Shown here one piece after another: positions 2,380 through 62,828 of a stretch of DNA of 64,000 nt. Below the pieces are notes generated by a model, which ran no database searches, was not told the DNA's origin, and saw only the letters and a list, made by a program, of their open reading frames with translations. Made by a program: the position numbers and the translations under genes. Every line of letters starts with the position of its first letter. Within the stretch, counting starts at the first letter, position 1. Origin of the DNA: Protula sp. h YS-2021 (Eukaryota > Annelida > Polychaeta > Sabellida > Serpulidae); NCBI GenBank assembly GCA_949752745.1, contig OX457026.1, forward strand, positions 28,582,116 through 28,646,115, given 5' to 3'.

Positions 2380-2389
2380 GTATATTACC

Positions 2390-8750: not shown

Positions 8751-8757
8751 ACACACC

Positions 8758-18989: not shown

Positions 18990-21900
18990 GCTACAGCTCA
19001 AACTGGTCTCATCAACAAATACTGGTCTCCTTACGTTATCTGTTCTACAGTTCGCATTGGCCTTCTCTAAAGCTCACATTGGGTTTCTCTACAGCTCATA
19101 TTAATCTCCCCTTCCATTGAGCTTCTGTACAGCTCACATTTGGCTTCGTTATAGCTCACATTGGTCTTCTCTACTGCTCACATTGATCTCCTCAACAGTT
19201 CACATGGGGCTTCTCTACAGCTTACATTGGTGTCTTCTTTAGCTCACATTCGGCTTCTCTACAGCTCACATTGGTCTCCTCCACAGCTGACATTGTTCTC
19301 CTCTACAGCTCATCTTGGTCTTCTCTACAGCTCACATTGGTCTTCTCTAAAGCTCACATGGTGCTTCTCTCCAGCTCACTTTGATCTCCACTACAGCTCA
19401 CATTGGCCTCCCCTGTAGCTCACATTGGTCTGTTCTACAGCTCACATTGATCACACCGACATGGAGAACCTCTGCAGATGTCGTTGATCTCCTCTACAGC
19501 TGACATTGGTGTCATCTACAGGTGACATTAGTCTCCTGTACTGTTCACATTGGTCTCCTCTTGTCCGCTACAGCTCATATTGCTGTTCTCTACAGCTCAC
19601 ATAAGGGTTCTCTACAGCTCACATTGTTCTGTTCTACATTTCACATTGATATACAATTTATTTTGGTCTCCTCTGCAAATGACATGGGGCCTGTCTACAT
19701 CTTGCATTGGTTTCCTCTGGACATGACATTGTGCTTCTCTACATCTCACATTGATCTCTGGCTCACATTGGTTTTCACTACAGTTCACATTGATCTCCTC
19801 TACAGCTCACATTGATCTCCTCTATAGCTTATTTTGGGCTCCTCCAGACCTGACATTGGTCTGCTCTATACCTTTCACTGATCTCCTCTACAGCTCACAT
19901 TGGTCTTCTGTACAAGTCACATTGGTTTTCTCTACAGTTCACATTGATCTCCTCCACAGCTCACATTGATCTTCTCTTCAGCTCATTTTAAGCTCCTCTA
20001 GACCTGACATCGGGCTTCTCTACAGCTCTCATTGGTTTCCTCTACAGCTCACATTCTGCTTTTCTACAGCTCACGTTGGTCTTCTCTACAGATCACATTG
20101 ATCTCCTCTACAGCTGACATTGTTCTCCTCTACAGCTCACGTTGATCTGCTCTACAGCTTATATTAGTCTCCTCTTCAGCTCACATTGGTCTCCTCTAAG
20201 GCTGACATGGTGTTTCTCTACAGCTCACATTGATCTCCTATACAGCTCATTTTTGTCTGACATTCGGCTACTCTACAGTTCACACTGGTTTCCTTTACAG
20301 CTCACATTGTCTTCTCTAAAGCTCTCATTGCTTTCCTCCACAGCTTATTTTGATCCCCTCTACAGATGACTTATGACCTCTCTACAGCTCACATTGGTCT
20401 CCTCTACAGCTCGTTTTTGTCTTCTCTACAGCTAGCATCGGGCTTCTGTACTTTTTACATTGGTTTCCTCTACAGCTCACATTGGTCTTCTCTAAAGCTC
20501 ACATTTGGCTTCTCTACAGCTCATATTGATCTTATCTACAGCTCATGTTGGTTTTCTGTATAGCTCACATTGCTCTTATCTACTGTTCACATTGCTCTCC
20601 TCTAGAGCTGACGTTGGTCTCCCGTACAACTGACATAGATCTCCTCTACAGCTCACAGTTGTCTCCTATACTTACAGCTCACATTGGTCTCATCTACAGC
20701 TCAAATATATTTTTTCTACAGCTCACATTGTTCTCCTGTAGATCTCACATTGGTCTCCTCTACACCTCACTTTAACCTCTACAGCTCACGTTGATCCCCT
20801 CTACATCTCACATTGGTCTCCTCTACAGCTCACATTGGGCTTTTCTGCAGCTCACATTGGGCTTCTCTACAGCTCACATTGGTCTTCTCTACACATCACA
20901 TTGATCTCCTCCACAGCTGACATTGTTCTCCTCTACTGCTCACGTTGATCTCCTGTACGGCTCACAATAATATCTACTGCAACTCACATTGGTCTCATCT
21001 ACATCTCACATTGGTCCCCGCTACAGCTCCCATTGGTTTCTTCTGTAGCTCACATTGGGCTTTTCTACAGCTCACATTGGTCTTCTCTAAAGCTCACATG
21101 GTGCTTCTCTCCAGCTCACATTGATCTCCTCTACAGCTGATCTTGGTCTTCTTTACAGCTCACATTGGTCTTCTCTAAAGCTCACATGGTTCTTCTCTCC
21201 AGCTCACATTGATCTCCTCTACAGCTCACATTGGCCTCCCCTATAGCTCGCATTGGTCTGTTCTACAGTTCACATGGATCACACCGACATGGAGAACCTC
21301 TGCAGATGTCGTTGATCTCCTCTACAGCTGACATTGGTGTCATCTACAGGTGACATTAGTCTCCTGTACTGTTCACATTGGTCTCCTCTTGTCCGCTACA
21401 GCTCACATTGCTGTTCTCTACAGCTCACATAAGGGTTCTCTACAGCTCACATTGTTCTGTTCTACAGTTCACATTGAAATACAACTTATTTTGGTCTCCT
21501 CTGCAAATGACATGGGGCCTGTCTACGTCTTACGTTGGTTTCCTCTGGACATGACATTGTGCTTCTCTACATCTCACATTGATCTCTAGCTCACATTGGT
21601 TTTCACTACAGTTCACATTGATCTCCTCTACAGCTCACATTGATCTCCTCTACAGCTTATTTTGGGCTCCTCCAGACCTGACATCGGGCTTCTCTACAGC
21701 TCACATTGGTTTCCTTTACAGCTCACATGCGGCTTCTCTACAGCTCACGTTGATCTGCTGTATATCTCACATTAGTCTCCTTTACAGCTGACATTTTTTA
21801 CCTCTACGGCTCACATTGGGCTTCTCTACAGCTCACAGTGGTCTTCTCTACAGCTCACATTGATCTAATCTACAGCTCACATTGTTCTCCTCTACAGCTC

Positions 21901-24736
21901 ACGTTGATCTGCTCTACATCTCATATTGATCTTCTCTACAGCTTATATTAGTCTCCTCTTCAGCTCACATTGGTCTCTTCTAAGGCTGACATGGTGTTTC
22001 TCTACAACTCACATTGATCTCCTATACAGCTCATTTTTGTCTGACATTCGGCTACTCTACAGTTCACACTGGTTTCCTTTACAGCTCACATTGTCTTCTC
22101 TAAAGCTCTCATTGCTTTCCTCCACAGCTTATTTTGATCCCCTCTACAGACGACTTATGACCTCTCTACAGCTCACATTGGTCTCCTCTACAGCTCGTTT
22201 TTGTCTTCTCTACAGCTAGCATCGGGCTTCTCTACTTTTCACATTGGTTTCCAATACAGCTCACATTGGTCTTCTCTAAAGCTCACATTTGGCTTCTCTA
22301 CAGCTCATATTGATCTTATCTACAGCTCATGTTGGTTTTCTGTATAGCTCACATTGCTCTTCTCTACTGTTCACATTGCTCTCCTCTAGAGCTGACATTG
22401 GTCTCCCGTACAACTGACATAGATCTCCTCTACAGCTCACAGTTGTCTCCTATACTTACAGCTCACATTGGTCTCATCTACAGCTCAAATTTATTTTTTC
22501 TACAGCTCACATTGTTCTCCTGTAGATCTCACATTGGTCTCCTCTACACCTCACTTTAACCTCTACAGCTCACGTTGATCCCCTCTACATCTCACATTGG
22601 TCTCCTCTACAGCTCACATTGGGCTTTTCTGCAGCTCACATTGGGCTTCTCTACAGCTCACATTGGTCTTCTCTACACATCACATTGATCTCCTCCACAG
22701 CTGACATTGTCTCCTCTAAGGCTGACATGGTGTTTCTCTACAGCTCACATTGATCTCCTATACAGCTCATTTTTGTCTGACATTCGGCTACTCTACAGTT
22801 CACACTGGTTTCCTTTACAGCTCACATTGTCTTCTCTAAAGCTCTCATTGCTTTCCTCCACAGCTTATTTTGATCCCCTCTACAGATGACTTATGACCTC
22901 TCTACAGCTCACATTGGTCTCCTCTACAGCTCGTTTTTGTCTTCTCTACAGCTAGCATCGGGCTTCTCTACTTTTCACAGTGGTGTCCTCTACAGCTCAC
23001 ATTGGTCTTCTCTAAAGCTCACATTTGGCTTCTCTACAGCTCATATTGATCTTATCTACAGCTCATGTTGGTTTTCTGTATAGCTCACATTGCTCTTCTC
23101 TACTGTTCACATTGCTCTCCTCTAGAGCTGACGTTGGTCTCCCGTACAACTGACATAGATCTCCTCTACAGCTCACAGTTGTCTCCTATACTTACAGCTC
23201 ACATTGGTCTCATCTACAGCTCAAATTTATTTTTTCTACAGCTCACATTGTTCTCCTGTAGATCTCACATTGGTCTCCTCTACACCTCACTTTAACCTCT
23301 ACAGCTCACGTTGATCCCCTCTACATCTCACAGTGGTCTCCTCTACAGCTCACATTGGGCTTTTCTGCAGCTCACATTGGGCTTCTCTACAGCTCACATT
23401 GGTCTTCTCTACACATCACATTGATCTCCTCCACAGCTGACATTGTTCTCCTCTACAGCTCACGTTGATCTCCTCTACGGCTCACAATAATATCTACTGC
23501 AACTCACATTGGTCTCATCTACATCTCACATTGGTCCCCGCTACAGCTCCCATTGGTTTCTTCTGTAGCTCACATTGGGCTTTTCTACAGCTCACATGGT
23601 GCTTCTCTCCAGCTCACATTGATCTCCTCTACAGCAGATCTTGGTCTTCTTTACAGCTCACATTGGTCTTCTCTAAAGCTCACATGGTTCTTCTCTCCAG
23701 CTCACATTGATCTCCTCTACAGCTCACATTGGCCTCCCCTATAGCTCGCATTGGTCTGTTCTACAGTTCACATGGATCACACCGACATGGAGAACCTCTG
23801 CAGATGTCGTTGATCTCCTCTACAGCTGACATTGGTGTCATCTACAGGTGACATTAGTCTCCTGTACTGTTCACATTGGTCTCCTCTTGTCCGCTACAGC
23901 TCACATTGCTGTTCTCTACAGCTCAGATAAGGGTTCTCTACAGCTCACATTGTTCTGTTCTACAGTTCACATTGAAATACAACTTATTTTGGTCTCCTCT
24001 GCAAATGACATGGGGCCTGTCTACGTCTTACATTGGTTTCCTCTGGACATGACATGGTGCTTCTCTACATCTCACATTGATCTCTAGCTCACATTGGTTT
24101 TCACTACAGTTCACATTGATCTCCTCTACAGCTTATTTTGGGCTCCTCTAGACCTGACATGCGGCTTCTCTACAGCTCACGTTGATCTGCTGTATATCTC
24201 ACATTAGTCTCCTTTACAGCTTATATTAGTCTCCTCTTCAGCTCACATTGGTCTCCTATACAGCTCATTTTGATCCCCTCTACAGCTGACTTATGGCCTC
24301 TCTACAGCTCACATTGGTCTCCTCTACAGCTCATTTTTGTCTTCTGTACAGCTAACATCGGGCTTCTCTACTTTTCACATTGGTTTCCTCTACAGCTCAC
24401 ATTGGTCTTCTCTAAAGCTCACATTGGCTTCTCTACAGCTCATATTGATCTTATCTACAGCTCATGTTGGTTTTCTGTATAGCTCACATTGCTCTTCTCT
24501 ACTGTTCACATTGCTCTTCTCTAGAGCTGACATTGGTCTCCTGTACAACTGACATAGATCTCCTCTACAGCTCACAGTTGTCTCCTCTACAGCTCACATT
24601 GGTTTTTTCTGCAGCTCACATTGGACTTCTCTACAGCTCACATTGGTCTTCTATATAGCTCACATTTGTCTCCTCTATAGCTCACATCAGTCTTCTATAC
24701 AGCTCACATTGGTCTCTTCTACAGCTCATTTTTGTC
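18990..24736 (+). repeat. Array zone A: no embedded SINE-like element
   Basis: Higher-order copies are marked by the off-consensus phrase ACACCGACATGGAGAACC at about 19453, 21281 and 23779 (intervals ~1.83 and ~2.50 kb). A ~0.74-kb block is additionally duplicated: 22.0-22.7 kb matches 22.7-23.46 kb and 20.2-20.9 kb. The longer second interval is explained by that internal duplication. Confidence 0.82.
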
Positions 24737-24954
24737 TGTGGGGTGTTTTGAATCTTTAAGAATACACCCACTGCATTCTATTCCGTGCATGGCGTAAGAG
24801 GCGGCTTATCGAAATTTTTTTTTGTAACTCTTCTTTTACATTCTTTTTTTCATTCTTCCCTCTTTTTTTCCCACTTGTTCCTTTAGCAAGTGCATCCTAA
24901 TATACCCATCATAGTCGCTTAACGGGACGTTAAACACCAAACCAACAACAACAA
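24737..24954 (+). mobile_element. Embedded SINE-like element, copy 1
   Basis: About 218 bp of non-satellite sequence: TGTTTTGAATCTTTAAGAAT at the 5' end, a GTAAGAGGCGGCT core, a long pyrimidine tract, then TTAACGGGACGTTAAACACC and CAA repeats. The 3' end is of a type I associate with mollusc interspersed repeats (from memory). No pol III A or B box is obvious, so it may be a LINE-tail-derived or unclassified element. Leftmost copy in the array. Confidence 0.78.
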
Positions 24955-25796
24955 CTCTACAGCTCACATTAATCTCCTGTACAAGTCACAATGGTGTCTA
25001 CTACAACTCACTTTGGTCTCATTGACAGCTCACATTGGACTTCCTTACAACTCACATTGGACTCCTCTACAGCTGACATTGGTCTTCTGTACAGCTCACA
25101 TTGGTCTCCTCTACAGCTCATTTTTGTCTGACATTCGGCTACTCTACAGTTCACACTAGTTTTCTCTACAGCTCACATTGTCTTCTCTAAAGCTCACATT
25201 TGGCTTCTCTACAGCTCATATTGATCTTGACCACAGCTCATGTTGGTTTTCTGTATAGCTCACATTACTCTTCTCTACTGTTCACATTGCTCTCCTTTAG
25301 AGCTGACATTGGTCTCCTGTACAACTCACATAGATCTCCTCTACAGCTCACAGTTGTCTCCTATACTTACAGCTCACATTGGTCTCATCTACAGCTCAAA
25401 TTTATTTTTTCTACAGCTCACATTGTTCTCCTGTAGATCTCACATTGGTCTCCTCTACACCTCACTTTAATCTCTACAGCTCACGTTCATCCCCTCTACA
25501 TCTCACATTGGTGTCCTCTATAGCTCACATTTTTTTCTGCAGCTCACATTGGTCTTCTCTACAGCTCACATTGGTCTTCTCTACAGATCACATTGATCTC
25601 CTCCACAGCTTACATTGTTCTCCTCTAGAGCTCACATTGATCTCCTCTACGGCTCACAATAATATCTACTGCAATTCACATTGCTCTCATGTACATCTCA
25701 CATTGGTCTCCTCTACAGCTCACATTGGATTCCTCTGCAGCTCACATTGGTCTTCTGTACAGCTCACATAGATCTCCTCTATAGCTCATTTTTGTC

Positions 25797-26023
25797 TGTG
25801 GGTTGTTTTGAATCTTTAAGAATACACCCACAGCATTCTATTCCGTGCATGGCGTAAGAGGCGGCTAATTGAAATTTCTTTCTTTCTATCTCTTCTTTTA
25901 CTATTTTTTCATTCTTCCCTCTTTTTCCCCCGCTTGTTCCTTTAGCAAGTGCGTCCTAATATACCCATCATAGTCGCTTAATGGGACGTTAAACACCAAA
26001 CCAACAACAACAACAACAACAAC
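25797..26023 (+). mobile_element. Embedded SINE-like element, copy 2
   Basis: Same junctions as copy 1, with a longer CAA tail. Zone B subtype (TGTGGGTTG start). Confidence 0.78.
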
Positions 26024-26582
26024 TCTACAGCTCACATTAATCTCCTCTACAAGTCACAATGGTGTCTACTACAACTCACTTTGGTCTCATCTACAGCTCA
26101 CATTGGACTTCTCTACAACTCACATTGGACTCCTCTACAGCTGACATTGGTCTTCTGTACAGCTCACATTGGTCTCCTCTACAGCTCATTTTTGTCTGAC
26201 ATTCGGCTACTCTATAGTTCATACTGGTTTTCTCTACAGCTCACATTGTCTTCTCTAAAGCTCACATTGCTTTCCTTCACAGGTCATATTGATCATCCCC
26301 TCTACAGTTGACTTATGGCCTCTCTACAGCTCACATTGGTCTCCTCTACAGCTCATTTTTGTCTTCTCTACAGCTAGCATCGGGCTTCTCTACTTTTCAC
26401 ATTGGTTTCCTCTACAGATCCCATTGTTCTTCTCTAAAGCTCACATTGTTCTCCTCTACAGCTCACATCGATCTCCTCTACAACTCACATTGGTCTTCTG
26501 TACAGCTCACATAGGTATCCTCTATAGCACACATCAGTCTTCTCTACAGCTCACATTGGTCTCTTCTACAGCTCATTTTTGC

Positions 26583-26802
26583 CTGTGGGGTGTTTTGAAT
26601 CTTTAAGAATACACCCACTGCATTCTATTCCGTGCATGGCGTAAGAGGCGGCTAATCGGAATTTCTTTCTTTCTAACTCTTCTTTTACTATTTTTTTCAT
26701 TCTTCCCTCTTTTTTTCCCACTTGTTCCTTTAGCAAGTGCGTCCCAATATACCCATCATAGTCGCTTAACGGGACGTAAACACCAAACCAACAACAACAA
26801 CA
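26583..26802 (+). mobile_element. Embedded SINE-like element, copy 3
   Basis: Zone B subtype with GACGTAAACACC, one T short of the other copies at that site. This variant recurs in copies 5, 7 and 8, which links those units by descent. Confidence 0.78.
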
Positions 26803-27878
26803 TCTCTACAGCTCACATTGATCTCCTCTACAAGTGACATTGGTGTCTACTACAACTCACTTTGGTCTCATCTACAGCTCATATTGGACTTCTCTACATC
26901 TCACATTGGACTCCTCTACAGCTGACATTGATTTTCTGTACAGCTCACATTGGTCTCCTCTACAGCTCATTTCTGTCTGACATTCGGCTACTCTACAGTT
27001 CACACTGATTTTCTCTACAGCTCACATTGTCTTCTCTAAAGCTCACATTGCTTTCCTCCACAGCTCGTTTTGATCCCCTCTACAGCTGACTTATGGCCTC
27101 TCTACCGCTCACAATGGTCTCCTCTACAGCTCATTTTTGTCTTCTGTACAACTAGCATCGGGCTTCTCTACTTTTCACATCGGTTTCCTCTACAGCTCAC
27201 ATTGGTCTTCTCTAAAGCTCACATTTGGCTTCTCTACGGCTCATATTGATCTTATCTACAGCTCATGTTGGTTTTCTGTGTAGCTCACATTGCTCTTCTC
27301 TACTGTTCACATTGCTCTCCTCTAGAGCTGACATTGGTCTCCTGTACAACTCACATAGATCTCCTCTACAGCTCACAGTTGTCTCCTATACTTACAGCTC
27401 ACATTGGTCTCATCTACAGCTCTAATTTATTTTTTCTACAGCTCACATTGTTCTCCTGTAGATCTCACATTAGTCTCCTCTACACCTCACTTTAATCTCT
27501 ACAGCTCACGTTGATCCCCTCTACATCTCACATTGGTGTCCTCTATAGCTCTCTACAGCTCACATTGGTCTTCTCTACAGATCACATTGATCTCCTCCAC
27601 AGCTTACATTGTTCCCCTCTACAGCTCACATTGATCTCCTCTACGGCTCACAATAATACCTACTGCAACTCACATTGGTCTCATCTACATCTCACATTGG
27701 TCTCCTCTACAGCTCACATTGGATTCCTCTACAGCTCACATTGGTCTTCTGTACAGCTCACATAGATCTCCTCTATAGCTCACATTGGTCTTCTGTACAG
27801 CTCACATTGGTCTCCTCTATAGCTCACATCAGTCTTTTCTACAGCTCACATTGATCTCTTCTACAGCTCATTTTTGTC

Positions 27879-28099
27879 TGTGGGTTGTTTTGAATCTTTA
27901 AGAATACACCCACTGCATTCTATTCCGTGCATGGCGTAAGAGGCGGCTAATTGGAATTTCTTTCTTTCTAACTCTTCTTTTACTATTTTTTCATTCTTCC
28001 CTCTTTTTTCCCCGCTTGTTCCTTTAGCAAGTGCGTCCTAATATACCCATCATAGTCGCTTAACGGGACGTTAAACACCAAACCAACAACAACAACAAC
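27879..28099 (+). mobile_element. Embedded SINE-like element, copy 4
   Basis: Zone B subtype close to copies 2 and 6 (CCCCGCTTGTTCC). Confidence 0.78.
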
Positions 28100-28725
28100 T
28101 CTACAGCTCACATTAATCTCCTCTACAAGTCACAATGGTGTCTACTACAACTCACTTTGGTCTCATCTACAGCTCACATTGGACTTCTCTACAACTCACA
28201 TTGGACTCCTCTACAGCTGACATTGGTCTTCTGTACAGCTCACATTGGTCTCCTCTACAGCTCATTTTTGTCTGACATTCGGCTACTCTATAGTTCATAC
28301 TGGTTTTCTCTACAGCTCATATTGTCTTCTCTAAAGCTCACATTGCTTTCCTTCACAGGTCATATTGATCAGCCCCTCTACAGTTGACTTATGGCCGCTC
28401 TACAGCTCAGATTGGTCTCCTCTACAGCTCATTTTTGTCTTCTCTACAGCTAGCATCGGGCTTCTCTACTTTTCACATTGGTTTCCTCTACAGATCCCAT
28501 TGCTCTTCTCTAAAGCTCACATTGTTCTCCTCTACAGCTCACATCGATCTCCTCTACAACTCACATTGGTCTTCTGTACAGCTCACATAGGTATCCTCTA
28601 TAGCTGACATTGGTCTTCTGTACAGCTGACATTGGTCTTCTCTATAGCTGACATTGGTCCCCTCTATAGCTCACATCAGTCTTCTCTACAGCTCACATTG
28701 GTCTCTTCTACAGCTCATTTTTGCC

Positions 28726-28954
28726 TGTGGGGTGTTTTGAATCTTTAAGAATACACCCACTGCATTCTATTCCGTGCATGGCGTAAGAGGCGGCTAATCG
28801 GAATTTCTTTCTTTCTAACTCTTTTTTTACTATTTTTTTCATTCTTCCCACTTTTTTTCCCACTTGTTCCTTTAGCAAGTGCGTCCCAATATACCCATCA
28901 TAGTCGCTTAACGGGACGTAAACACCAAACCAACAACAACAACAACAACAACAA
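28726..28954 (+). mobile_element. Embedded SINE-like element, copy 5
   Basis: Shares the GACGTAAACACC deletion with copy 3 and has an expanded CAA tail. Confidence 0.78.
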
Positions 28955-29579
28955 CTCTACAGCTCACATTGATCTCCTCTACAAGTCACAATGGTGTCTA
29001 CTACAACTCACTTTGGTCTCATTTACAGCTCACATTGGACTTCTCTACATCTCACATTGGACTCCTCTACAGCTGACATTGGTTTTCTGTACAGCTCACA
29101 TTGGTCTCCTCTACAGCTCATTTTTGTCTGACATTACGGCTACTCTACAGTTCACACTGGTTTTCTCTACAGCTCACATTGTCTTCTCTAAAGCTCACAT
29201 TGCTTTCCTCCACAGCTCATTTTGATCCCCTCTACAGCTGACTTATGGCCTCTCTACAGCTCACATTGGTCTCCTCTACAGCTCATTTTTGTCTTCTGTA
29301 CAACTAGCATCGGGCTTCTCTACTTTTCACATCGGTTTCCTCTACAGCTCACATTGGTCTTCTCTAAAGCTCACATTTGGCTTCTCTACGGCTCATATTG
29401 ATCTTATCTACAGCTCATGTTGGTTTTCTGTACAGCTCACATTGCTCTTCTCTAATGTTCACATTGCTCTCCTCTAGAGCTGACATTGCTCTCCTGTACA
29501 ACTCACATTGGTCTCCTCTATAGCTCACATCAGTCTTTTCTACAGCTCACATTGCTCTCTTCTACAGCTCATTTTTGTC

Positions 29580-29818
29580 TGTGGGTTGTTTTGAATCTTT
29601 AAGAATACACCCACTGCATTCTATTCCGTGCATGGCGTAAGAGGCGGCTAATTGGAATTTCTTTCTTTCTAACTCTTCTTTTACTATTTTTTCATTCTTC
29701 CCTCTTTTTTCCCCGCTTGTTCCTTTAGCAAGTGCGTCCTAATATACCCATCATAGTCGCTTAACGGGACGTTAAACACCAAACCAACAAGAACAACAAC
29801 AACAACAACAGCAACAAC
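29580..29818 (+). mobile_element. Embedded SINE-like element, copy 6
   Basis: Longest CAA tail of the set, with GAA and CAG interruptions. Confidence 0.78.
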
Positions 29819-30488
29819 TCTACAGCTCACATTAATCTCCTCTACAAGTCACAGTGGTGTCTGCTACAACTCACTTTGGTCTCATCTACAGCTCACATTG
29901 GACTTCTCTAAAACTCACATTGGACTCCTCTACAGCTGACATTGGTCTTCTGTACAGCTCACATTGGTCTCCTCTACAGCTCATTTTTGTCTGACATTCG
30001 GCTACTCTATAGTTCATACTGGTTTTCTCTACAGCTCACATTGTCTTCTCTAAAGCTCACATTGCTTTCCTTCACAGGTCATCTTGATCAGCCCCTCTAC
30101 AGTTGACTTATCGCCGCTCTACAGCTCACATTGGTCTCCTCTACAGCTCATTTTTGTCTTCTCTACAGCTAGCATCGGGCTTCTCTACTTTTCACATTGG
30201 TTTCCTCTACAGATCCCATTGTTCTTCTCTAAAGTTCACATTGTTCTCCTCTACAGCTCACATCGATCTCCTCTACAACTCACATTGGTCTTCTGTACAG
30301 CTCACATAGGTATCCTCTATAGCTCACATTGGTCTTCTGTACAGCTGACATTGGTCTTCTCTATAGCTGACATTGGTGTGCTCTTCAGTTCACATTGGTC
30401 TTCTGTACAGCTCACATTGGTCTCCTCTATAGCTCACATCAGTCTTCTCTACAACTCACATTGGTCTCTTCTACAGCTCATTTTTGCC

Positions 30489-30704
30489 TGTGGGGTGTTT
30501 TGAATCTTTAAGAATACACACACTGCATTCTATTCGGTGCATGGCGTAAGAGGCGGCTAATCGGAATTTCTTTCTTTCTAACTCTTCTTTTACTATTTTT
30601 TCATTCTTCCCTCTTTTTTTCCCACTTGTTCCTTTAGCAAGTGCGTCCCAATATACCCATCATAGTCGCTTAACGGGGCGTAAACACCAAACCAACAACA
30701 ACAA
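30489..30704 (+). mobile_element. Embedded SINE-like element, copy 7
   Basis: Shares GGGGCGTAAACACC and TTCGGTGC with copy 8, only ~0.43 kb away, which points to a very recent local duplication. Confidence 0.78.
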
Positions 30705-30922
30705 CTCTACAGCTCACATTGATCTCCTCTACCAGTCACAATGGTGTCTACTACAACTCACTTTGGTCTCATCTACAGCTCACATTGGACTTCTCTACAT
30801 CTCACATTGGACTCCTCTAGAGCTGACATTGCTCTCCTGTACAACTCACATTGGTCTCCTCTATAGCTCACATCAGTCTTTTCTACAGCTCACATTGCTC
30901 TCTTCTACAGCTCATTTTTGTC

Positions 30923-31139
30923 TGTGGGTTGTTTTGAATCTTTAAGAATACACCCACTGCATTCTATTCGGTGCATGGCGTAAGAGGCGGCTAATCGGAA
31001 TTTCTTTCTTTCTAACTCTTCTTTTACTATTTTTTCATTCTTCCCTCTTTTTTTCCCACTTGTTCCTTTAGCAAGTGCGTCCCAATATACCCATCATAGT
31101 CGCTTAACGGGGCGTAAACACCAAACCAACAACAACAAC
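30923..31139 (+). mobile_element. Embedded SINE-like element, copy 8
   Basis: Near twin of copy 7. Its 5' few bases follow copies 2, 4 and 6, so it looks like a recombinant of two element subtypes. Confidence 0.78.
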
Positions 31140-32243: not shown

Positions 32244-32461
32244 TGTGTTGTGTTTTGAATCTTTAAGAATACACCCACTGCATTCTGTTCCGCGCATGGC
32301 GTAAGAGGCGGCTAATCGGAATTTTCTTTCTTTCTAACTCTTCTTTTACTATTTTTTCATTCTTCCCTCTTTTTTTCCCACTTGTTCCTTTAGCAAGTGC
32401 GTTCTAATATACCCTTCATAGTTTCTTAACGGGACGTTAAACACCAAACCAACAACAACAA
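32244..32461 (+). mobile_element. Embedded SINE-like element, copy 9
   Basis: First of the zone C subtype: TGTTGTGTTTTG start, CTGTTCCGCGCATGG, and CCTTCATAGTTTCTTAACG. Confidence 0.8.
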
Positions 32462-45410: not shown

Positions 45411-45412
<2 letters not shown>

Positions 45413-45469
45413 GCTCACATCAGTCTTCTCTACAGCTCATATTGGTCTCTTCTACAGTTCATTTTTGTC

Positions 45470-51782: not shown

Positions 51783-52000
51783 ATGTGGTGTTGGGAATCT
51801 TTAAGAATACACCCACTGCATTCTGTTCCTGCATGGCGTAAGAGGCGGCTAAATGGAATTTCTTTCTCTCTAACTCTTTTGTTACTATTTTTTCATTCTT
51901 CCCTCTTTTTTTCCCACTTGTTCCTTTAGCAAGTGCGTCCCAATATACCCATCATAGTCGCTTAACGGGACGTTAAACACCAAACCAACAACAACAACAA
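51783..52000 (+). mobile_element. Embedded SINE-like element, copy 17
   Basis: Last copy. It shares GTGTTGGGAATC with copy 14 but has CGCTTAACGGGACG, so it is intermediate between the zone B and zone D subtypes. No copy is found further right. Confidence 0.78.
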
Positions 52001-55000
52001 CTCTACAGCTCACATTGATCTCCTGTACAAGTCACAATGGTGTCTACTACAACTCACTTTGGTCTCATCTACAGCTCATATTGGACTTCTCTACAACTCA
52101 CATCGGACTCCTCTACAGCTAACATTGTTATCTACAGTTCACATTGATCTGCTCTACACAGCTCACAATGGTGTCTGCTACAACTCACATTCGTCTCATC
52201 TACAGCTCACATTCGTCTTCTCAACAGCTCATATTGGTCTCTACACCTCACATTGGTCTCCTCTACAGCTCACAATTGTTTTCCCTACAGCTCACATTGC
52301 TTGTCTCTACAGGTGTCATTGGTCTTCTCTACAACTCACATTGCTCTTCTCTATTGCTCACATTAGTTTCCTCTACAGCTCACATTGAACTTCTTTAAAG
52401 CTCACATTGATCTCTTCTACAACTCACATTGGTCTTCTGTACAGCTCACATAGGATTCCACTATAGCTCAAACTTATTTTCTCTACAGCTCACATTGGCT
52501 TCCTCTACAGTTCACATGGCGCTTCTGTACAGCTCACATAGGTCTCCTCTATAGCTGACATTGGTCTTCTCTACAGCTGACATTGGTCTTCTCTATAGCT
52601 GACATTGATCTCCTCTACAGCTTCATATTGGTCTTCTGTACAAGTCACATTGGTTTTCTGTACAGTTCACATCGGGCTTCTCTACAACTCACATTGGTCT
52701 TCTCTAAAGCTCATGTGGGGCTTCTCTACAGCTCACGGTGACCTGCTCTACATCTCACATTGGTGTCCTTTACAGTTCACATTTATTTCCTCCGCAGCTC
52801 ACATCTTGCTTCTCTACAGCTCACATTGGCTTCTCTACAGCTCACATTGATCTACTCTATCGCTGACATTTTTCTCCTCTACAGCTCACATTGTACTTCT
52901 CTACAGCTCACATTGGTCTTCTCAATAGCTCACATTGGCTTCCTCTAAGGTTCACACGGTGTTTCTCTAGAGCTCACATTGATCTCCTCTACAGCTTACA
53001 TTGGTCTGCTGTACAGCTCACATTGGTCTCCTCTACAGCTCATTTTTGTCTGACATTGGGCTCCTCTACAGTTCACATTGGTCTCCTCTACAGCTCACAT
53101 TGTTCTCCACTACGGCTCACATTAGGTTTCTCTACTGCTAACATTGGTCTCCTCTACATCTCACATTGGTCTCCTCTACACGTCACTTTAACCTCTACAG
53201 CTGACATAGGTCTCTTATACAGCTCACGTTGTTCTCCACTACGGCTCACATTAGGGTTCTCTACAGCTCACATTGTTCTGTTCTACAGTTCACATTGATC
53301 TCTACAACTCATTTAGGTCTCCTCTACAGCTGACATGGGGCCTCTCTACATCTTAATTGGTTTCCTCTACAGCTGACATGGTGCTTCTCGGCATCTCACA
53401 TTGATCTCCTCTACAGCTCACATTAGTCTTCTGTACAAGTCACATTGGTTTTCTCTACAGTTCACATTGATCTCCTCTACAGCTCACATTGATCTTCTCT
53501 TCAGCTCATTTTAAGCTCCTTTAGAGCTCACATGAAGCTTTTCTACAGCTCACATTGGTCTTCTCTAAAGCCTACATAGGGCTTCTCTACAGCTCAGGTT
53601 GACCTGCTCTACAACTCATATTGGTCTCCTTTACAGTTCACATTTATTTCCTCTACAGCTCACATCGGGCTTCTCTACAGCTCACATTGGTCTTCTCTAC
53701 AGCTCACATTGATTTACTGTACAGCTGACACTTTTCTCCTCTACAGCTCACATTGGTCTCCTACAGCTCATTTTTGTCTGACGTTGGGCTCCGCTACTGT
53801 TCACACTGATTTCCTCTACAGCTCACATTGGTCTTCTCTAAAGCTCAGATTGTTTTCCTCTACAGCTCATTTTTGTCCCCTCTAGAGTTGACTTGGGGCC
53901 CCCTCTACAACTCACATTGGTCTCCTCTACAGCTCATTTTTGTCTTCTCTACAGCTGACATCGGGTTTCTCTACTGTTCATATTGGTTTCCTTCAAAGCT
54001 CACATTGATCTTCTAAAGCTCACATTTCGGTTCTGCACAGGTCATATTGTTCTCATCTACAGCTCATATTCGTCTTCTGTATAGCTCACATTGCTATCTT
54101 CTAGACATGGGCTTCTCTACAACTTTAATTGGTTTTCTGTACAGTTCACATCCTGCTTCTGTTCTCTACAGCTCCCATGAGGCTTCTCTACAGCTAACAT
54201 TGGTCTTTTCTATAACTCACATTGGTCTCCTGTACAACTAACGAGGCTTGTCTACAGCTCACATTGGTCTCCTCTACAGGTTACATTGGTGTTTCACATG
54301 ATTTTTCTCTTCAGTTCACATTGGTCTTCTCTGCAGCTCGCATTCATCTTCTCCACAGCTCACATTGGTCACCTCTATAGTTCACATTGGTCTTCTCTGA
54401 CGCTCACGTTGGTCTCCTCTACACCTCACATTGTACTTCTCTACAGCTCACATTGGTTTTCTCTATAGTTCACATTAGACTCTTCTACAGCTTACATTCT
54501 TTTATCTATAGCTCACATTGGTCTCCTGTACAACTCACATTGATAACCTCTGTAGCTCACATTGGTCTTCTCTACAGCTCGTATTTGTCTTTTCTACAAC
54601 TCGCATGTTGGTGTTCTCCAACTCACATTGGTTTCCTCTACAGGTCACATGGGGCTTCTTTGCAGCTCACATTGGTTTTCTCTACAGCTCACATTAATCT
54701 CCTCTATAGCTTACATCGATCTCCTCTGCAGCTCACATTTGTCTTCTCCACTACTCAAATTGGTCTTCTCTAAGGTTCACATGGTGTTTCTCTACAGCTT
54801 ACATCGATCTCCTCTGCAGCTCACATTTGTCTTCTCCACTACTCACATTGGTCTTCTCTACAGCTCACATTGGTTTCGTCTATAGCTCACATTTGGCTTC
54901 TCTACAGTTCACATTAGACTCCTCTACACCTCACATTGTACTTCTCTACACCTCACATTGTACTTCTCTACAGCTCACATTGGTCTTCTCAATAGCTCAC

Positions 55001-58000
55001 ATTGGCCTCCTCTAAGGTTCACATGGTGTTTCTCTACAGCTCACATTGATCTCCTCTACAGCTCACATTGGTCTTCTGTACAGCTCACATTGGTCTCCTC
55101 TACAGCTCATTTTTGTCTGACATTGGGTTCCTCTACAGTTCACATTTTTTTCCTCTACAGCTCACATTGGTCTTCTCTAAAGCTCAGATTGCTTTCCTCT
55201 ACAGCTCATTTTTTTCCTCTTTACAGTTGACTTGGGACCTCTCTACAGCTCACATTGGTCTCCTCTACATCTCATTTTTGTCTTCTCTACAGCTGACATC
55301 GGTACTTCTTACTGTTCACATTGGTTTCCTTCACAGCTCACATTGATCTTCTCTAAAGCTCACATTTGGCTTCTGTACAGCTCATATTTATCTCATCTAC
55401 AGCTCATATTCGTCTTCTGTATATCTCATATTGCTCTCTTCTAGAGCTGACATTGGTCTCCTGTAGTGCTCACATAAATCTCCTCTGCAGCTCACAGTGG
55501 TCTCTACAGCTCAAATTGGTCTCCTCTACAGCTCAAATTGGTTTCCTCTACATCTGACATTGGTCTCCTTTACACGTCACTTTTACCTCTATAACTCACA
55601 TTGGTCTCCTCTACAGCTCACATTGTTCTCCACTACGGCTGACATTAGGTTTCTCTACTGCTAACATTGGTCTCCTCTACATCTCACATTGGTCTCCAAT
55701 ACACGTCACTTTAACCTCTACAACTGACATTGGTCTCTTCTACAGCTCACGTTGTTCTCCACTACGGCTCACTTTAGGGTTCTCTACAGCTCACATTGTT
55801 CAGTTCTACAGTTCACATTGATCTCTACAACCCATTTTGGTCTCCTCTACAGCTGACATGGGTCCTCTCTGCATCTTAATTGGTTTCCTCTACAGCTGAC
55901 ATGGTGCTTCTCGGCATCTCACATTGATCTCCTCTACAGCTCACATTAGTCTTCTGTACAAGTCACATTGGTTTTCTCTACAGTTCACATTGATCTCCTC
56001 TACAGCTCACGCTGACCTGCTCTACAACTCACATTGGTCTTCTGTACAGCTCGCATTTGTCTTTTCTACAACTCGCATGTTGGTGTTCTCCAACTCACAT
56101 TGGTTTCCTCTACAGGTCACATGGGCTTCTTTGCAGCTCACATTGGTTTTCTCTACAGCTCACATTGGTCTTCTGTAGAGCTCACATTGATCTCCTCTAT
56201 AGCTTACATCGATCTCCTCTACAGCTCACATTTGTCTTCTCCACTACTCACATTGGTCTTCTCTAAGGTACACATGGTGTTTCTCTACAGCTCACATTGA
56301 TCTCCTCTACAGCTCACATTGTTCTTCTCTACAGCTCACATTGGTCTTCTCTAGAGATCACATTGATCTCCTCTATAGCTTACATTGATCACCTCTGTAG
56401 CTCACATTTGTCTTCTCCACTACTCACATTGGTCTTCTCTACAGCTCACATTGGTTTCGACTATAGCTCACATTTGGCTTCTCTACAGTTCACATTAGAC
56501 TCCTCCACACCTCACATTGTACTTCTCTACAGCTCACATTGGTCTTCTCAATAGCTCACATTGGTCTCCTCTAAGGTTCACATGGTGTTTCTCTACAGCT
56601 CACATTGATCTCCTCTACAGCTGGCATTGGTCTTCTGTACAGCTCACATTGGTCTCCTCTACAGCTCGTTTTTGTCTGACATTGGGCTCCTCTACAGTTC
56701 AAATTGGTTTCCTCTACAGCTCACATTGGTCTTCTCTAAAGCTCAGATTGCTTTCCTGTACAGCTCATTTTTGTCCCCTCTACAGTTGACTTGGGGCCTC
56801 TCTTCAGCTCACATTAGTCTCCTCTACAGCTCATTTTTGTCTTCTCTACAGCTGACATCGGTGCTTTTTTACTGGTCAGATTGGTTTCCTTCACAGCTCA
56901 CATTGATCTTCTCTAAAGCTCACATTTGGCTTCTGTACAGCTCATATTGATCTCATCTACAGCTCATATTCGTCTTCTGTATAGCTCATATTGCTCTCTT
57001 CTAGAGCTGACATTGGTCTCCTGTAGAGCTCACATAAATCTCCTCTGCAGCTCACAGTGGTCTCTACAGCTCAAATTGGTCTCCTCTACAGCTCAAATTG
57101 GTCTCCTCTACATCTGACATTGGTCTCCTTTACACGTCACTTTTACCTCTACAGCTCACATTGGTCTCTTCTACAGCTCGCGTTGTTCTCCACTACGGCT
57201 GACATTAGGTTTCTCTACTGCTAACATTGGTCTCCTCTACACGTCACTTTAACCTCTACAACTGACATTGCTCTCTTCTACAGCTCACGTTGTTCTCCAC
57301 TACGGCTCACATTAGGGTTCTCTACAGCTCACATTGTTCTGTTCTACAGTTCACATTGATCTCTACAACTCATTTTGGTCTCCTGTACAGCTGACATGGG
57401 GCCTCTCTACATCTTAATTGGTTTCCCCTACACTTGACATGGTGCTTTTCGGCATCTCACATTGAACGCCTCTACAATCACATTAGTTTTCGGTACAAGT
57501 CACATTGGTTTTCTCTACAGTTGACATTGATCTCCTCTACAGCTCACATTGATCTTCTATTCAGCTCATTTTAAGCTCCTCTAGATCTCACATGAAGCTT
57601 TTCTACAGCTCACATTGGTCTTGTCTAAAGCCTACATAGGACTTCTCTACAGCTCACGTTGACCTGCTCTACAACTCACATTGGTCTCCTTTACAGTTCA
57701 CATTTATTTCCTCTACAGCTCACATCGGGCTTCTCTACAGCTCACATTGGTCTTCTCTACAGCTCACATTGATCTACTGTACAGCTGACACTTTTCTCCT
57801 CTACAGCTCACATTGGTCTCCTCTACAGCTTATTTTTGTCTGACATTGGGCTCTCTACAGTTCACATTGGTTTCCTCTACAGCTCACATTGGTCTTCTCT
57901 AAAGCTCAGATTGTTTTCCTCTACAGCTCATTTTTGTCCCCTCTAGAGTTGACTTGGGGCCTCTCTACAACTCACATTGGTCTCCTCTACAGCTCACATT

Positions 58001-60377
58001 GGACTCCTCTACAGCTCCCATGAGGCTTCTCTACAGCTAACATTGGTCTTTTCTGTAACTCACATTGGTCTCCTGTACAACTAACGAGGCTTGTCTACAG
58101 CTCACATTGGTCTCCTCTACAGGTTACATTGGTCTTCTCTGCAGCTCGCATTCGTCTTCTCCACAGCTCACATTGGTCACCTCTATAGTTCACATTGGTC
58201 TTCTCTGACGCTCACGTTGGTCTCCTCTACACCTCACATTGTACTTCTCTACAGCTCACATTGGTTTTCTCTATAGTTCACATTAGACTCCTCTACAGCT
58301 CACATTCTTTTATCTACAGCTCACATTGGTCTCCTGTATAGCTCACATTGGTCAACTCTGTAGCTCACATTGGTCTTCAGTACAGCTCGCATTTGTCTTA
58401 TTTACAACTCGCATGTTGGTGTTCTCCAACTCACATTGGTTTCCTCTAAAGGTCACATGGGCTTCTTTGCAGCTCACATTGGTTTTCTCTACAGCTCACA
58501 TTGGTCTTCTGTAGAGCTCACATTGATCTCCTCTATAGCTTACATCGATCTCCTCTGCAGCTCACATTTGTCTTCTCCACTACTCACATTGGTCTTCTCT
58601 AAGGTTCACGTGGTGTTTCTCTACAGCTCACATTGATCTCCTCTACAGCACACGTTGGTTTCGTCTATAGCTCACATTTGGCTTCTCTACAGTTCACATT
58701 AGACTCCTCCACACCTCACATTGTACTTCTCTACAGCTCACATTGGTCTTCTCAATAGCTCACATTGGTCTCCTAAGGTTCACATGGTGTTTCTCTACAG
58801 CTCACATTGATCTCCTCTACAGCTGACATTGGTCTTCTGTACAGCTCACATTGGTCTTCTCTAGAGCTCAGATTGATCTCCTCTATAGCTTGCACTGATC
58901 TCCTCTGCAGCTCACATTTATCTTCTCCACTACTCACATTGGTCTTCTCTACAGCTCACATTGGTTTCGTCTATTGCTCACATTTGGCTTCTCTACAGTT
59001 CACATTAGACTCCTCTACACCTCACATTGTACTTCTTCACAGCTCACATTGGTCTTCTCAATAGCTCACATTGGCCTTCTCTAAGGTTCACATGGTGTTT
59101 CTCTACAGCTCACATTGGTCTTCTGTACAGCTCACATTGGTCTCCTCTACAGCTCATTTTTGTTTGACATTGGGCTCCTCTACAGTTCACCTTGGTTTCC
59201 TCTACAGCTCACATTGGTCTTCTCTAAAGCTCAGATTGCTTTCCTGTACAGCTCATTTTTGTCCCCTCTACAGTTGACTTGGGGCCTCTCTTCAGCTCAC
59301 ATTAGTCTCCTCTACAGCTCATTTTTGTCTTCTCTACAGCTGACATCGGTGCTTCTTTACTGTTCACATTGGTTTCCTTCACAGCTCACATTGATCTTCT
59401 CTAAAGCTCACATTTGGCTTCTGTACAGCTCATATTGATCTCATCTACAGCTCATATTCGTCTTCTGTATAGCTCATATTGCTCTCTTCTAGAGCTGACA
59501 TTGGTCTCCTGTAGAGCTCACATAAATCTCCTCTGCAGCTCACAGTGGTCTCTACAGCTCAAATTGGTCTCCTCTACAGCTCAAATTGGTCTCCTCTACA
59601 TCTGACATTGGTCTCCTTTACACGTCACTTGTACCTCTACAGCTCACATTGGTCTCTTCTACAGCTCACGTTGTTCTCCACTACGGCTCACATTAGGTTT
59701 CTCTACTGCTAACATTGGTCTCCTCTACATCTCACATTGGTCTCCTCTACACGTCACTTTAACCTCTACAACTGACATTGGTCTCTTCTACAGCTCACGT
59801 TTTTCTCCACTACGGCTCACATTAGGGTTCTCTACAGCTCACATTGTTCTGTTCTACAGTTCACATTGATCTCTACAACTCATTTTGGTCTCCTCTACAG
59901 CTGACATGGGGCCTCTCTACATCTTAATTGGTTTCCCCTACAGCTGACATGGTGCTTGTCGGCATCTCACATTGATCTCCTCTACTGGTCACATTAGTTT
60001 TCGGTACAAGTCACATTGGTTTTCTCTACAGTTGACATTGATCTCCTCTACAGCTCACATTGATCTTCTCTTCAGCTCATTTTAAGCTCCTCTAGATCTC
60101 ACATGAAGCTTTTCTACAGCTCACATTGGTCTTCTCTAAAGCCTACATAGGACTTCTCTACAGCTCACGTTGACCTGCTCTACAACTCACATTGGTCTGC
60201 TTTACAGTTAACATTTATTTCCTCTACAGCTCACATCGGGCTTCTCTACAGCTCACATTGATCTCCTCTACAGCTGACATTGGTCTTCTGTACAGCTCAT
60301 ATTGGACTCCTCTACAGCTCAACTTGGTTTATTCTACAGCTGACATCGGGCTTCTCTACTGTTCACATTGGTTTCCC

Positions 60378-60505
60378 CCTGTGAGGCACTCCACATGCAA
60401 GGGTTAGAAGGAGGGCTGGAATGCCCCATTTCAGTATAATGTGTCAGGGGGATCCCGACATGACCATAGCAGTTGAAAGGGATCTAAAGAACAATACAAT
60501 ACATT
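60378..60505 (+). mobile_element. tRNA-derived SINE, 5'-truncated copy
   Basis: Matches only the 3' half of the SINE at 62195-62433 (TGTGAGGCACTCCACATG to ATCTAAAGAACAATACAA). The flanks ATTGGTTTCC and ATTAGTTTCC could be a 10-bp target duplication with one change, although satellite periodicity gives similar flanks by chance. Confidence 0.78.
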
Positions 60506-61450
60506 AGTTTCCTTCACAGCTCACATTGATCTTCTCTAAAGCTCACATTTGGCTTCTGTACAGCTCATATTGATCTCATCTACAGCTCATATTCGTCTTC
60601 TGTATAGCTCAAATTGCTCTCTTCTAGACATTGGGCTTCTCTACAGCTTTAATTGGTTTTCTGTACAGTTCACATCCTGCTCCTCTTCTCTACAGCTCAC
60701 ATGGGTCTCCTCCACAGATCACATTGGTCTCCTCTACAGCTTACATTGATCTCCTCTACAGCTTACATTGATCTCCTCTGCAGCTCACATTGGTCTTCTC
60801 TACAGCTTGCATTGGTCTCCTCTACAGCTCACATTGGACTCCTCTACAGCTCACATGAGGCTTCTCTACAGCTCACATTGGTCTTTTCTATAACTCACAT
60901 TGGTCTCCTGTACAACTAACGAGGCTTGTCTACAGCTCACATTGGTCTCCTCTACAGGTTACATTGGTGTTTCACATGATTTTTCTCTTCAGCTCACATT
61001 GGTCTTTGCAGCTCGCATTCGTCTTCTGCACGGCTCACATTGGTCACCTCTATAGTTCACATTGGTCTTCTCTGCCGCTCGCGTTGGTCTCCTCTATACC
61101 TCACATTGTACTTCTCTACAGCTCACATTGGTTTTCTCTACAGTTTACATTAGACTCCTTCACAGCTCACATTCTTTTATCTACAGCTCACATTCATCTC
61201 CTGTACAGCTCACATTGATCTCCTCTGCAGCTCATGTTGGTGTTCTGCAACTCACATTGGTTTCCTCTACAGGTCACATGGGGCTTCTTTGCAGCTCACA
61301 TTGGTTTTCTCTACAGCTCACATTGGTCTTCTCTAGAGCTCACATTGATCTCCTCTATAGCTTACATTGATCACCTCTGTAGCTCACATTTGTCTTCTCC
61401 ACTACTCACATTGGTCTTCTCTACAGCTCACATTGTTTCGTCTATAGCTC

Positions 61451-61494
61451 ATAGCAGTTGAAAGGGATCTAAAGAACAATACAATACAATACAT
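61451..61494 (+). mobile_element. tRNA-derived SINE, extreme 3' remnant
   Basis: Only the last ~44 bp (ATAGCAGTTGAAAGGGATCT, AAAGAACAATACAATAC) is present inside satellite units. Confidence 0.75.
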
Positions 61495-62194
61495 TGGTCT
61501 TCTCCAAAGCTCATATTGTTGTCCTCTACAGCTCACGTTATCTTATGTACAGCTCACACTGGTCTTCTCTGCAACTCACACGGGGTTTCTCTACAGCTCA
61601 TATTGGACTCCTCTACAGCTCAACTTGGTTTATTCTACAGCTCATATTGGTTTTCTCTACAGCTCACATTGGTCTTCTCTAGAGCTCACATTGATCTCCT
61701 CTGTAGCCCACATTTGTCTTCTCCACTACTCACATTGGTCTTCTCTACAGCTCACATTGGTTTCGTCCATAGCTCATATTTGGCTTCTCTGCACCTCACA
61801 TTGGGCTTCTCTGCAGCTGACAGTGGTCTCCTCTATAGCTCATATTGATCTCACATACAGCTCAAATTGATCTCCTCCACAGTTCACATTGGACTCCTCT
61901 ACAGCTCCCTTTGGTTTGTTTTACAGGTCACTTTTATGTCCTCTACAGCCCGTGTTGGTGTCCTCTACAGCTCATATGAGGGGTCTCTACAGCTCACATT
62001 GCTATGTTCTACAGTTCACATTGATCTCTACAACTCATTTTCGTCTCCTTTACAGCTTACATTGGTTTCCTCTACAACTGACATAGTGCTTCTCACCATC
62101 TCACATTCATCTCCTCTACAGCTTACATTGCTCTTCTGTATAGCTCACATTTTTTTCTCTAATGTTCACATTGTTCTCCTCTACAGCTCAAACC

Positions 62195-62433
62195 AGCCTT
62201 TGTGGCCTAGTGGTTAGAGTGTCCGCCTCGAGACTGGAAGATCGTGGGTTCAGACCCCGGTCGGGTCATACCTAAGACTTTAAAATTGGGACTCTTCCTT
62301 GCTACCCTGTGAGGCACTCCACCTGTAAGGGTTAGAAGGAGGGCTGGAATGCCCCATTTCAGTATAATGTGGCAGGGGGATACCGACATGACCATAGCAG
62401 TTGAAAGGGATCTAAAGAACAATGCAATACAAT
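62195..62433 (+). mobile_element. tRNA-derived SINE, full-length copy
   Basis: The head is tRNA-like with an internal pol III promoter: A box TGGCCTAGTGG (62203-62213) and B box GGTTCAGACCC (62247-62257), 33 bp apart. A unique body follows, then an AACAATGCAATACAAT tail, typical for SINEs moved by a partner LINE. A 71-codon minus-strand frame across it is not a gene. The parent tRNA is not identifiable with confidence. Confidence 0.88.
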
Positions 62434-62828
62434 CTACAGCTCATTTTGGGCTGCTCTACAGCTGACATCGGGCTTCTCTACAGCTCACATTGGTTTCCTC
62501 TACAGGTCACATTGGTTTCCTCTACAGGTCACATTGGTCTCTACACCTGGCATTGGTCTCCCCTACAACTTGCATTGGTATCCTCTGCAGCTCGCAATGG
62601 CTTCCTCTAGAGCTCACATTGGCCTCATCTCTTGCTGACATTGATATCCTCTTCAGCTCGCGTTTGTGTCCTTCACAGGTCACATTGGTTTTCTGTGCAG
62701 TTCACATGGTGCTTCTGTACAGCTCACTTTGGTCTTCTCTACAGCTCATGTTTGTCTCCTATATAGCTCACATTAGTGTCCTCAAAAGCTCCAATTTCTT
62801 TCCTCTACAGCTCTGTCCTCTACAGCTC
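62434..62828 (+). repeat. Last, degenerate satellite units
   Basis: About 18 units between the two full SINEs, more diverged than those in the interior (for example CTCATGTTTGTCTCC and CTCCAATTTC), as expected at an array edge. Confidence 0.75.

What the first reader, a model, noticed from the sequence alone, without database searches (positions are those of the whole stretch)
18990..62828. A 44-kb array of tandem 3'-splice-site-like units
Seen: the 22-bp unit reads CTCAC, about 13 bases of mostly T/C, then CTACAG. Known: metazoan 3' splice sites combine a YTNAY branch point, a pyrimidine tract and YAG. CTCAC fits YTNAY, and its A lies about 18 nt before the AG, near the accepted minimum. Inference: if transcribed from the plus strand, this RNA would offer well over a thousand consecutive pseudo-acceptors and UCUU/CUCUCU sites of the kind bound by PTB and U2AF. 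It could act as a splicing-factor sponge or nuclear-body scaffold, comparable in principle to the human pyrimidine-rich transcript PNCTR. Orientation matters: only the plus strand has this property.
Basis: partly seen in the sequence, partly recalled or inferred. Interest (0 to 1): 0.8.

Follow-up and report, generated by a model that had tools for sequence, protein, structure and literature searches.

The report
Large minisatellite resembling splice sites
This is a very large stretch of a short DNA repeat in an animal genome that grew by repeated copying of its own segments; its likeness to splice sites is real but looks like a coincidence of one ancestral 22-letter word rather than a function.

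Summary
A 22-bp repeat (consensus CTCACATTGGTCTCCTCTACAG, 82% identity) fills 18991-62829: 1,775 units outside 21 inserts. It resumes past the window, about 52 kb in all. The genome's 135 exact matches to a 28-base repeat pattern are accounted for by this one locus (118 + 17).

The consensus scores like a mid-range acceptor and beats most shuffles. But 983 of 1,775 units have both branch-point and YAG motifs, the longest unbroken run is 9, and the minus strand carries equally dense donor-like sites (36.3 vs 36.1 per kb). The essential G is kept no better than non-splice G9. UCUU and CUCUCU do not exceed composition; UCUCU and YUCUYY do. The resemblance is best read as a chance property of one founding word, copied.

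What shaped the array is amplification: 2.7-kb higher-order repeats 94.0-99.7% alike, and 17 copies of one dispersed SINE-like element, best explained by a single capture. A splicing-factor sponge is not excluded, since transcription could not be tested, but has no evidence beyond sequence likeness. Verdict: an unusually large minisatellite, a new member of a known kind.

The parts
18991..62829 (+). Tandem array of the 22-bp unit CTCACATTGGTCTCCTCTACAG; 2,022 unit slots parsed, 1,775 outside inserts
   Evidence: wrap-around alignment, TRF
32236..43079 (+). Four successive ~2.7-kb higher-order repeats (2704, 2665, 2726, 2749 bp, counted from element E to element E), with a partial fifth compared to 44,500; pairwise identity 94.0-99.7%
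24729..52000 (+). Stretch holding 17 copies of one SINE-like element E (224-246 bp as cut here, (CAA)n tail), all at the same phase of the unit; start-to-start spacing 434 to 2871 bp
   Evidence: dispersed copies elsewhere
32236..32461 (+). Copy of element E used as query for the genome search
45046..45411 (+). Unrelated insert ending in (ATA)n
62191..62432 (+). tRNA-headed SINE-like insert; pieces of the same kind at 60373-60500 and 61452-61484
   Evidence: tRNA match below cut-off
62830..63069 (+). Further copy of the tRNA-headed element (94.4% to 62202-62435) at the start of a ~1.9-kb interruption, after which the array resumes outside the window
18472..18840 (-). Possible MULE-transposase-like fragment just left of the array
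   Evidence: Pfam MULE E=0.011, 16.6 bits, below its cut-off of 27.6

Best explanation
A very large, non-coding minisatellite, at one locus as far as exact matches show. Shown: a 22-bp word repeated head to tail; 2.7-kb higher-order repeats; 17 copies of a dispersed SINE-like element at one phase of the unit with matching flanks. Inferred: the element entered once, in a variant unit, and was multiplied with its neighbourhood; the copying was by unequal crossing-over or a similar recombination or replication process; and the array has no sequence-specific job. The acceptor look on one strand and the donor look on the other are by-products of the founding word (CTCAC/GTGAG and CTACAG), preserved by copying and not by selection.
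For: Array and consensus. One locus: 135 forward and 0 reverse exact matches in the genome (100 places listed) equal the 118 in the window plus 17 just downstream. Higher-order repeats 94.0-99.7% alike, random unit pairs 74.8%. Of 26 blocks of 500 bp from 31,491 on to 44,490, 22 have another copy at 98% or more. Capture of E: same unit phase, 17 of 17 followed by CTCTACAG; right 110-bp flanks 95.5% alike against 75.0% in in-phase controls; two clear substitutions fixed in the 17 and absent from 7 copies elsewhere, three of those from one array. E also sits in an unrelated ~2-kb tandem array on C2. Stop triplets 25.48/kb vs 25.63 expected. Changes follow base class: G/C to A/T 0.185, A/T to G/C 0.068.
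Against: In a base-matched test over 559 distinct units only 2 of 126 matched sets are kept as well as T2, A4, A21, G22; for A4, A21, G22 it is 2 of 18 (distinct) or 5 of 18 (all units). In the pyrimidine tract 58% of changes are transitions, against 50% for other pyrimidines. CAGGT, a possible acceptor-donor border, is above shuffle on the plus strand (37 vs 17.2). Transcription and population variation were not available; the copying mode is inferred from pattern; assembly error in near-identical repeats cannot be excluded; diverged copies elsewhere in the genome were not searched.
Confidence: 0.9

Rival explanations
1. One reading: plus-strand RNA of the array is a sponge or nuclear-body scaffold for PTB/U2AF-like factors, as PNCTR is for PTBP1.
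For: Acceptor-like density 36.07/kb vs 21.60 in dinucleotide shuffles and 5.5 on the plus strand of the flanks. 1,360 YUCUYY/YYUCUY instances, 703 non-overlapping, against PNCTR's 2,178 and 565 (PMC6224606, passages). One 221-nt piece folds less than its shuffles. Slight base-matched excess at splice positions.
Against: No transcript evidence; equal donor-like density on the minus strand; UCUU and CUCUCU not above composition; short 8-nt tracts; G22 lost in about 20% of units. The motifs are spread over 44 kb.
Confidence: 0.03
2. The array lies in an intron of a plus-strand gene and acts on local splicing as a run of decoy acceptors.
For: Acceptor-like units. In human factor VII intron 7 the splice donor lies in the first of several 37-bp repeats and only the most upstream is used (PMC6627357, passages), so repeats with splice-site units exist.
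Against: In 80 kb on each side, the frames scanned gave a TatD nuclease and RING/B-box frames about 24 kb or more from the array, and otherwise retroelements or no match; no gene was shown to span it. Only 11 of the 341 frames found were scanned, so this is weak.
Confidence: 0.04
3. The array is a degraded protein-coding repeat (the 66-nt frame of the consensus has no stop on the plus strand).
For: Consensus open on the plus strand; open frames of up to 199 aa in the array.
Against: Stop density equals a neutral column model (25.48 vs 25.63/kb, sd 0.86); 455 inserted and 1,088 deleted bases; no Pfam match at E 0.01 for the two array frames scanned.
Confidence: 0.02

Closest known systems
Large VNTR arrays with higher-order repeats, e.g. 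the human 61-bp VNTR at Xp22.33 (PMC2588610, passages seen)
   Same: Short monomer, tens of kb (18 kb there), irregular higher-order repeats of 1.6 and 2.5 kb; the same paper describes, in another array, an LTR6A inserted into a repeat and expanded with it
   Different: 22-bp monomer, about 52 kb, a SINE-like element captured, another genome
Molluscan satellites with subrepeats (PMC5874043, passages seen)
   Same: Unequal crossing-over or slippage on subrepeats is given there as the way to higher-order repeats
   Different: Other sequences and monomers; the host here is not identified
PNCTR, human pyrimidine-rich repeat RNA (PMC6224606, passages seen)
   Same: Many pyrimidine-rich PTB-type motifs on one strand
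   Different: PNCTR is a demonstrated >10-kb Pol I transcript from the rDNA spacer with measured PTBP1 binding; none of this is shown here
37-bp repeats of human factor VII intron 7 (PMC6627357, passages seen)
   Same: A tandem repeat whose unit holds a splice site
   Different: Donor and not acceptor, with one copy used as a real exon border

Membership tests
Minisatellite / higher-order-repeat array | Head-to-tail short unit in one orientation over kilobases | tested here: met
Minisatellite / higher-order-repeat array | Higher-order repeats more alike than single units | tested here: met
   94.0-99.7% vs 74.8%
Minisatellite / higher-order-repeat array | Copy-number variation between individuals | not testable with these tools
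   one assembly only
Functional 3' splice sites | Branch point, pyrimidine tract and YAG scoring within range | tested here: met
   consensus at 40th percentile of a recalled model; 983 of 1,775 units have both motifs
Functional 3' splice sites | The AG is kept under selection | tested here: not met
   G22 80.1% vs G9 81.7% over 1,480 units; 78.35% each in 559 distinct units; G10 65.0% and 64.2%. A small excess for T2/A4/A21/G22 together is noted
PNCTR-like splicing-factor sponge RNA | Transcribed, nuclear RNA | not testable with these tools
   no RNA data
PNCTR-like splicing-factor sponge RNA | High density of PTB motifs above composition | tested here: inconclusive
   UCUCU, YUCUYY and YYUCUY above mono-shuffle; UCUU and CUCUCU not
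SINE (element E) | Short, dispersed, target-site repeats, simple tail | tested here: met
   copies on five contigs; target-site repeats clear at L037, L039, L040, partial at L041 and L038
SINE (element E) | Pol III head | tested here: inconclusive
   no Rfam match at gathering score in the window; E not searched with a lax threshold

The most novel reading that the evidence does not exclude
The array is transcribed from the plus strand as a long, little-structured nuclear RNA that titrates PTB- or U2AF-type proteins: a splicing-factor sponge born from a minisatellite by chance and then kept for it. The slight base-matched excess at T2, A4, A21 and G22 would then be a trace of selection.
Probability: 0.03. 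Interest if true: 0.75.

Novelty: new member of a known kind. Interest (0 to 1): 0.22.

Why it matters
As a minisatellite it is a clear record of layered growth: a unit variant, a SINE-like insertion, then higher-order repeats, with the same element captured in a second, unrelated array. It also shows how one founding word can make over a thousand look-alike acceptors on one strand and as many look-alike donors on the other, a caution when repeats are read by motif. If transcribed, it would be a natural test of how cells ignore massed pseudo-splice sites.

Tried and rejected
Coding repeat: rejected on stop density and indels. Known RNA family: none at gathering score in the window; ARAGORN none. 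The TCL6_1 match is far below its cut-off (16.8 vs 60) and was treated as chance. Array as part of a transposon: no similarity at E 1e-3 between the left flank and the 1.2 kb of right flank in the window, or between left flank and array. Structured RNA: one 221-nt piece folds no better than 196 of 200 shuffles (z 1.85); only that piece was folded. Exact copies elsewhere: none for the unit in genome contigs or viral contigs, for E in viral contigs, for the tRNA-headed element in both; these hold prokaryotes and viruses, so this says little. None of five sequence strings is in the held papers. Paper searches on splice-site minisatellites and sponges; on such arrays and SINEs. Passages of PMC9659126 and PMC10294476 were also seen and added no closer case. 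Host not identified: the reverse transcriptase of the DIRS-like element (label recalled) has 382 relatives, 120 listed, the few named ones from Mytilus, Patella, two corals and a symbiont MAG; the best (72%) is unnamed. A protein search with the frame at 18472-18840 gave nothing.

Limits. The acceptor and donor matrices are recalled, rounded, human-like values, not fitted to this host. In one search the E copy at 45462 was cut too long to the left by my script: its left flank is wrong in that call, gap columns were skipped in the identities, and the start was corrected. In one search five of seven 'diagnostic' columns lie at the ragged 5' edge and were not counted. Column statistics use the 1,480 of 1,775 units without indels. 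The block comparison left out the continuation beyond the window.
Full report
WHAT IS THERE. A wrap-around alignment of the window to the 22-bp word CTCACATTGGTCTCCTCTACAG gives one run from 18991 to 62829, 82.1% identical over 43,384 aligned bases, with 455 inserted and 1,088 deleted bases. Tandem Repeats Finder reports the same array. A two-state segmentation marks 21 inserts totalling 4,556 bp, leaving 39,283 bp of repeat and 1,775 of 2,022 unit slots; 1,480 of these have no indel, 559 are distinct and 59 equal the consensus.

WHERE IT LIES. The window is C3:28582116-28646115 of an unnamed 863-Mb assembly in 218 contigs; C3 is 106.3 Mb long, so the locus is interior. The 28-base pattern CTACAGCTCAC-N11-CTACAG (17 fixed bases) occurs 135 times in the genome, all forward; 100 places are listed, all here. 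The window holds 118 and the next 10 kb 17, which accounts for all 135. The array resumes after a ~1.9-kb interruption that begins with a tRNA-headed element and runs from about 64,690 to 70,690 in window-continued coordinates, with small islands to about 77,170: about 52 kb in all. A search with mismatches did not complete, so diverged arrays elsewhere are untested.

HOW IT GREW. From about 31.4 to 44.5 kb the array is made of ~2.7-kb higher-order repeats. Counted from E to E they are 2704, 2665, 2726 and 2749 bp long, and pairwise identities among these four and a partial fifth are 94.0-99.7%, while random unit pairs are 74.8% alike. Of the 26 blocks of 500 bp from 31,491 on to 44,490, 22 have another copy in the array at 98% or more; the other four are 89.0, 96.2, 97.6 and 97.6%. 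Of the five blocks from 59,991 on to 62,490, three are 79.6-83.3% and two have no copy of 400 bp; the first block on the left is 83.7%. Identity to the consensus is 0.819 and 0.818 in the first and last 2-kb bins and 0.841-0.854 between 24,991 and 48,990. The pattern is not a simple gradient: blocks at 20,491 and 22,991 are 99.0% alike, blocks between 52 and 60 kb range from 81.1 to 96.4%, and the part beyond the window was not compared. A recently copied centre with older outer parts is what repeated unequal exchange is expected to leave (recalled model; inferred here).

THE CAPTURED ELEMENT. Seventeen inserts are one element (E), 95.0% alike on average (minimum 91.4%), entered at the same phase of the unit, after CTCATTTTTGTCT or a near variant of it, and all followed by CTCTACAG. 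The same word occurs many times without E, as a unit variant of the same length, so most simply the variant came first. Right flanks of 110 bp are 95.5% alike against 75.0% for in-phase controls; left flanks 86.1% against 73.5%, and over the nearest 22 bp on the left only 84.7% against 81.5% (one left flank mis-cut). In the own genome 40 of 2,883 first-look candidates were scored: 17 are this array, 20 lie on C2 and one each on C4, C5 and C7. Of the fetched copies L037, L039 and L040 show clear target-site repeats, L041 and L038 partial ones. The 17 array copies share two clear substitutions absent from 7 others, three of which come from one array. On C2, 17 of the scored copies lie between 57.198 and 57.260 Mb, mostly about 2 kb or a multiple apart, in a tandem array without the 22-bp unit; the five copies in the 9 kb fetched share one target-site repeat. 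So the element was very likely captured and co-amplified at least twice.

THE SPLICE-SITE READING. With a recalled human-like acceptor matrix the consensus scores 9.0, the 40th percentile of sequences drawn from the matrix. On the plus strand 1,417 AGs (36.07/kb) reach the 5th percentile, against 21.60/kb in dinucleotide shuffles, 12.08/kb in mono-shuffles, 5.5 and 8.5/kb on the two strands of the flanks and 0.43/kb on the minus strand. Of 20,000 shuffled consensus 22-mers, 3.9% do as well as the consensus, 8.0% of those that have an AG, 6.9% with the AG held fixed; 38.6% reach the 5th percentile. Of 1,480 indel-free units 1,101 end in AG; 1,048 of these reach the 5th percentile and 216 the median, and on average they beat 95.5% of shuffles of their own 18 upstream bases (all). 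But the units share descent: this is one word with a roughly 1-in-25 resemblance, noticed after the fact.

CONTROLS. Minus strand: the consensus holds AATGTGAGC, at the 36th percentile of a recalled donor matrix; 1,426 donor-like sites reach the 5th percentile, 36.30/kb (mono-shuffle 20.12). The same argument would make this an array of pseudo-donors in the other direction. Plus strand: GTRAGT 0 (shuffle mean 6.8), CAGGT 37 (shuffle 17.2); 119 donor-like sites, none at the model median. Conservation follows base class: T and A columns are kept at 0.903 and 0.889, C and G at 0.760 and 0.736 on average, with G/C to A/T changes at 0.185 and A/T to G/C at 0.068. G22 equals G9 (78.35% each in distinct units; 80.1% vs 81.7% in all), and G10 is lower (64.2%, 65.0%). 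Against my reading, the set T2, A4, A21, G22 is reached by only 2 of 126 base-matched sets, the three chemically needed bases alone by 2 of 18 or 5 of 18, and 58% of changes in the pyrimidine tract are transitions against 50% for other pyrimidines. I read these as weak and post hoc on 22 columns.

PROTEIN-BINDING MOTIFS. Array against mono-shuffle per kb: UCUU 11.96 vs 13.76; CUCUCU 1.32 vs 1.22; UCUCU 13.67 vs 4.11; YUCUYY 17.13 vs 10.96; YYUCUY 13.87 vs 10.90; U5 2.95 vs 5.72. In the whole 43.8 kb there are 1,360 YUCUYY/YYUCUY instances, 703 non-overlapping; PNCTR has 2,178 and 565 (PMC6224606, passages) and is a >10-kb RNA made by RNA polymerase I (passages). A transcript of this array could bind PTB-like proteins; whether one exists is unknown.

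SURROUNDINGS. Left of the array: reverse transcriptase, RNase H and tyrosine-recombinase frames between 3468 and 6605, which I call DIRS-like from recall; C2H2-bearing frames in an inverted repeat; and a possible MULE fragment (below cut-off). In 80 kb fetched on each side 341 open frames passed my filter (60 printed); 10 were scanned and one more. They gave a TatD nuclease about 29 kb to the left, RING/B-box frames about 34 kb to the left and 24 kb to the right, a LINE with endonuclease and reverse transcriptase just right of the array, other retroelements, and no match for five. No gene was shown to span the array, and most frames were not looked at.

CONCLUSION. The splice-site likeness is real; the function built on it is not supported, though not excluded. 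The best account is a large minisatellite shaped by repeated block copying with a co-amplified SINE-like element, comparable to human VNTR arrays with higher-order repeats and to arrays with an inserted element (PMC2588610, passages).

Noticed in passing
L037 (C2:57244000-57252999); C2:57.198-57.260 Mb: A second tandem array with a period of about 2 kb, without the 22-bp unit, holds the same SINE-like element E; the five copies in the fetched 9 kb share one target-site repeat.
   Followed up: partly
2016-7169: DIRS-like retroelement (frames with RT, RNase H, tyrosine recombinase) with a 34-bp perfect inverted repeat 2016-2049/7053-7086 and an 87-bp perfect inverted repeat 6862-6948/7083-7169.
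   Followed up: partly
8048-9477: Two C2H2-bearing frames on opposite strands, partly within an inverted repeat (arms 8170-8305 and 8848-8983, 93%); a word-based protein search with the second found one relative (60% over 41% of the query).
   Followed up: partly
17580-17652 and 18169-18320: C-rich and G-rich repeat blocks in inverted orientation beside the possible MULE fragment.
   Followed up: no
9863-11146: Six repeats spaced 144-172 bp (9863-10741) and four spaced 83-112 bp with long G runs (10768-11146).
   Followed up: no
L017-L018: The array continues past the window to about 70.7 kb; three more copies of the tRNA-headed element's core word lie there, while E's core word was not found.
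   Followed up: yes
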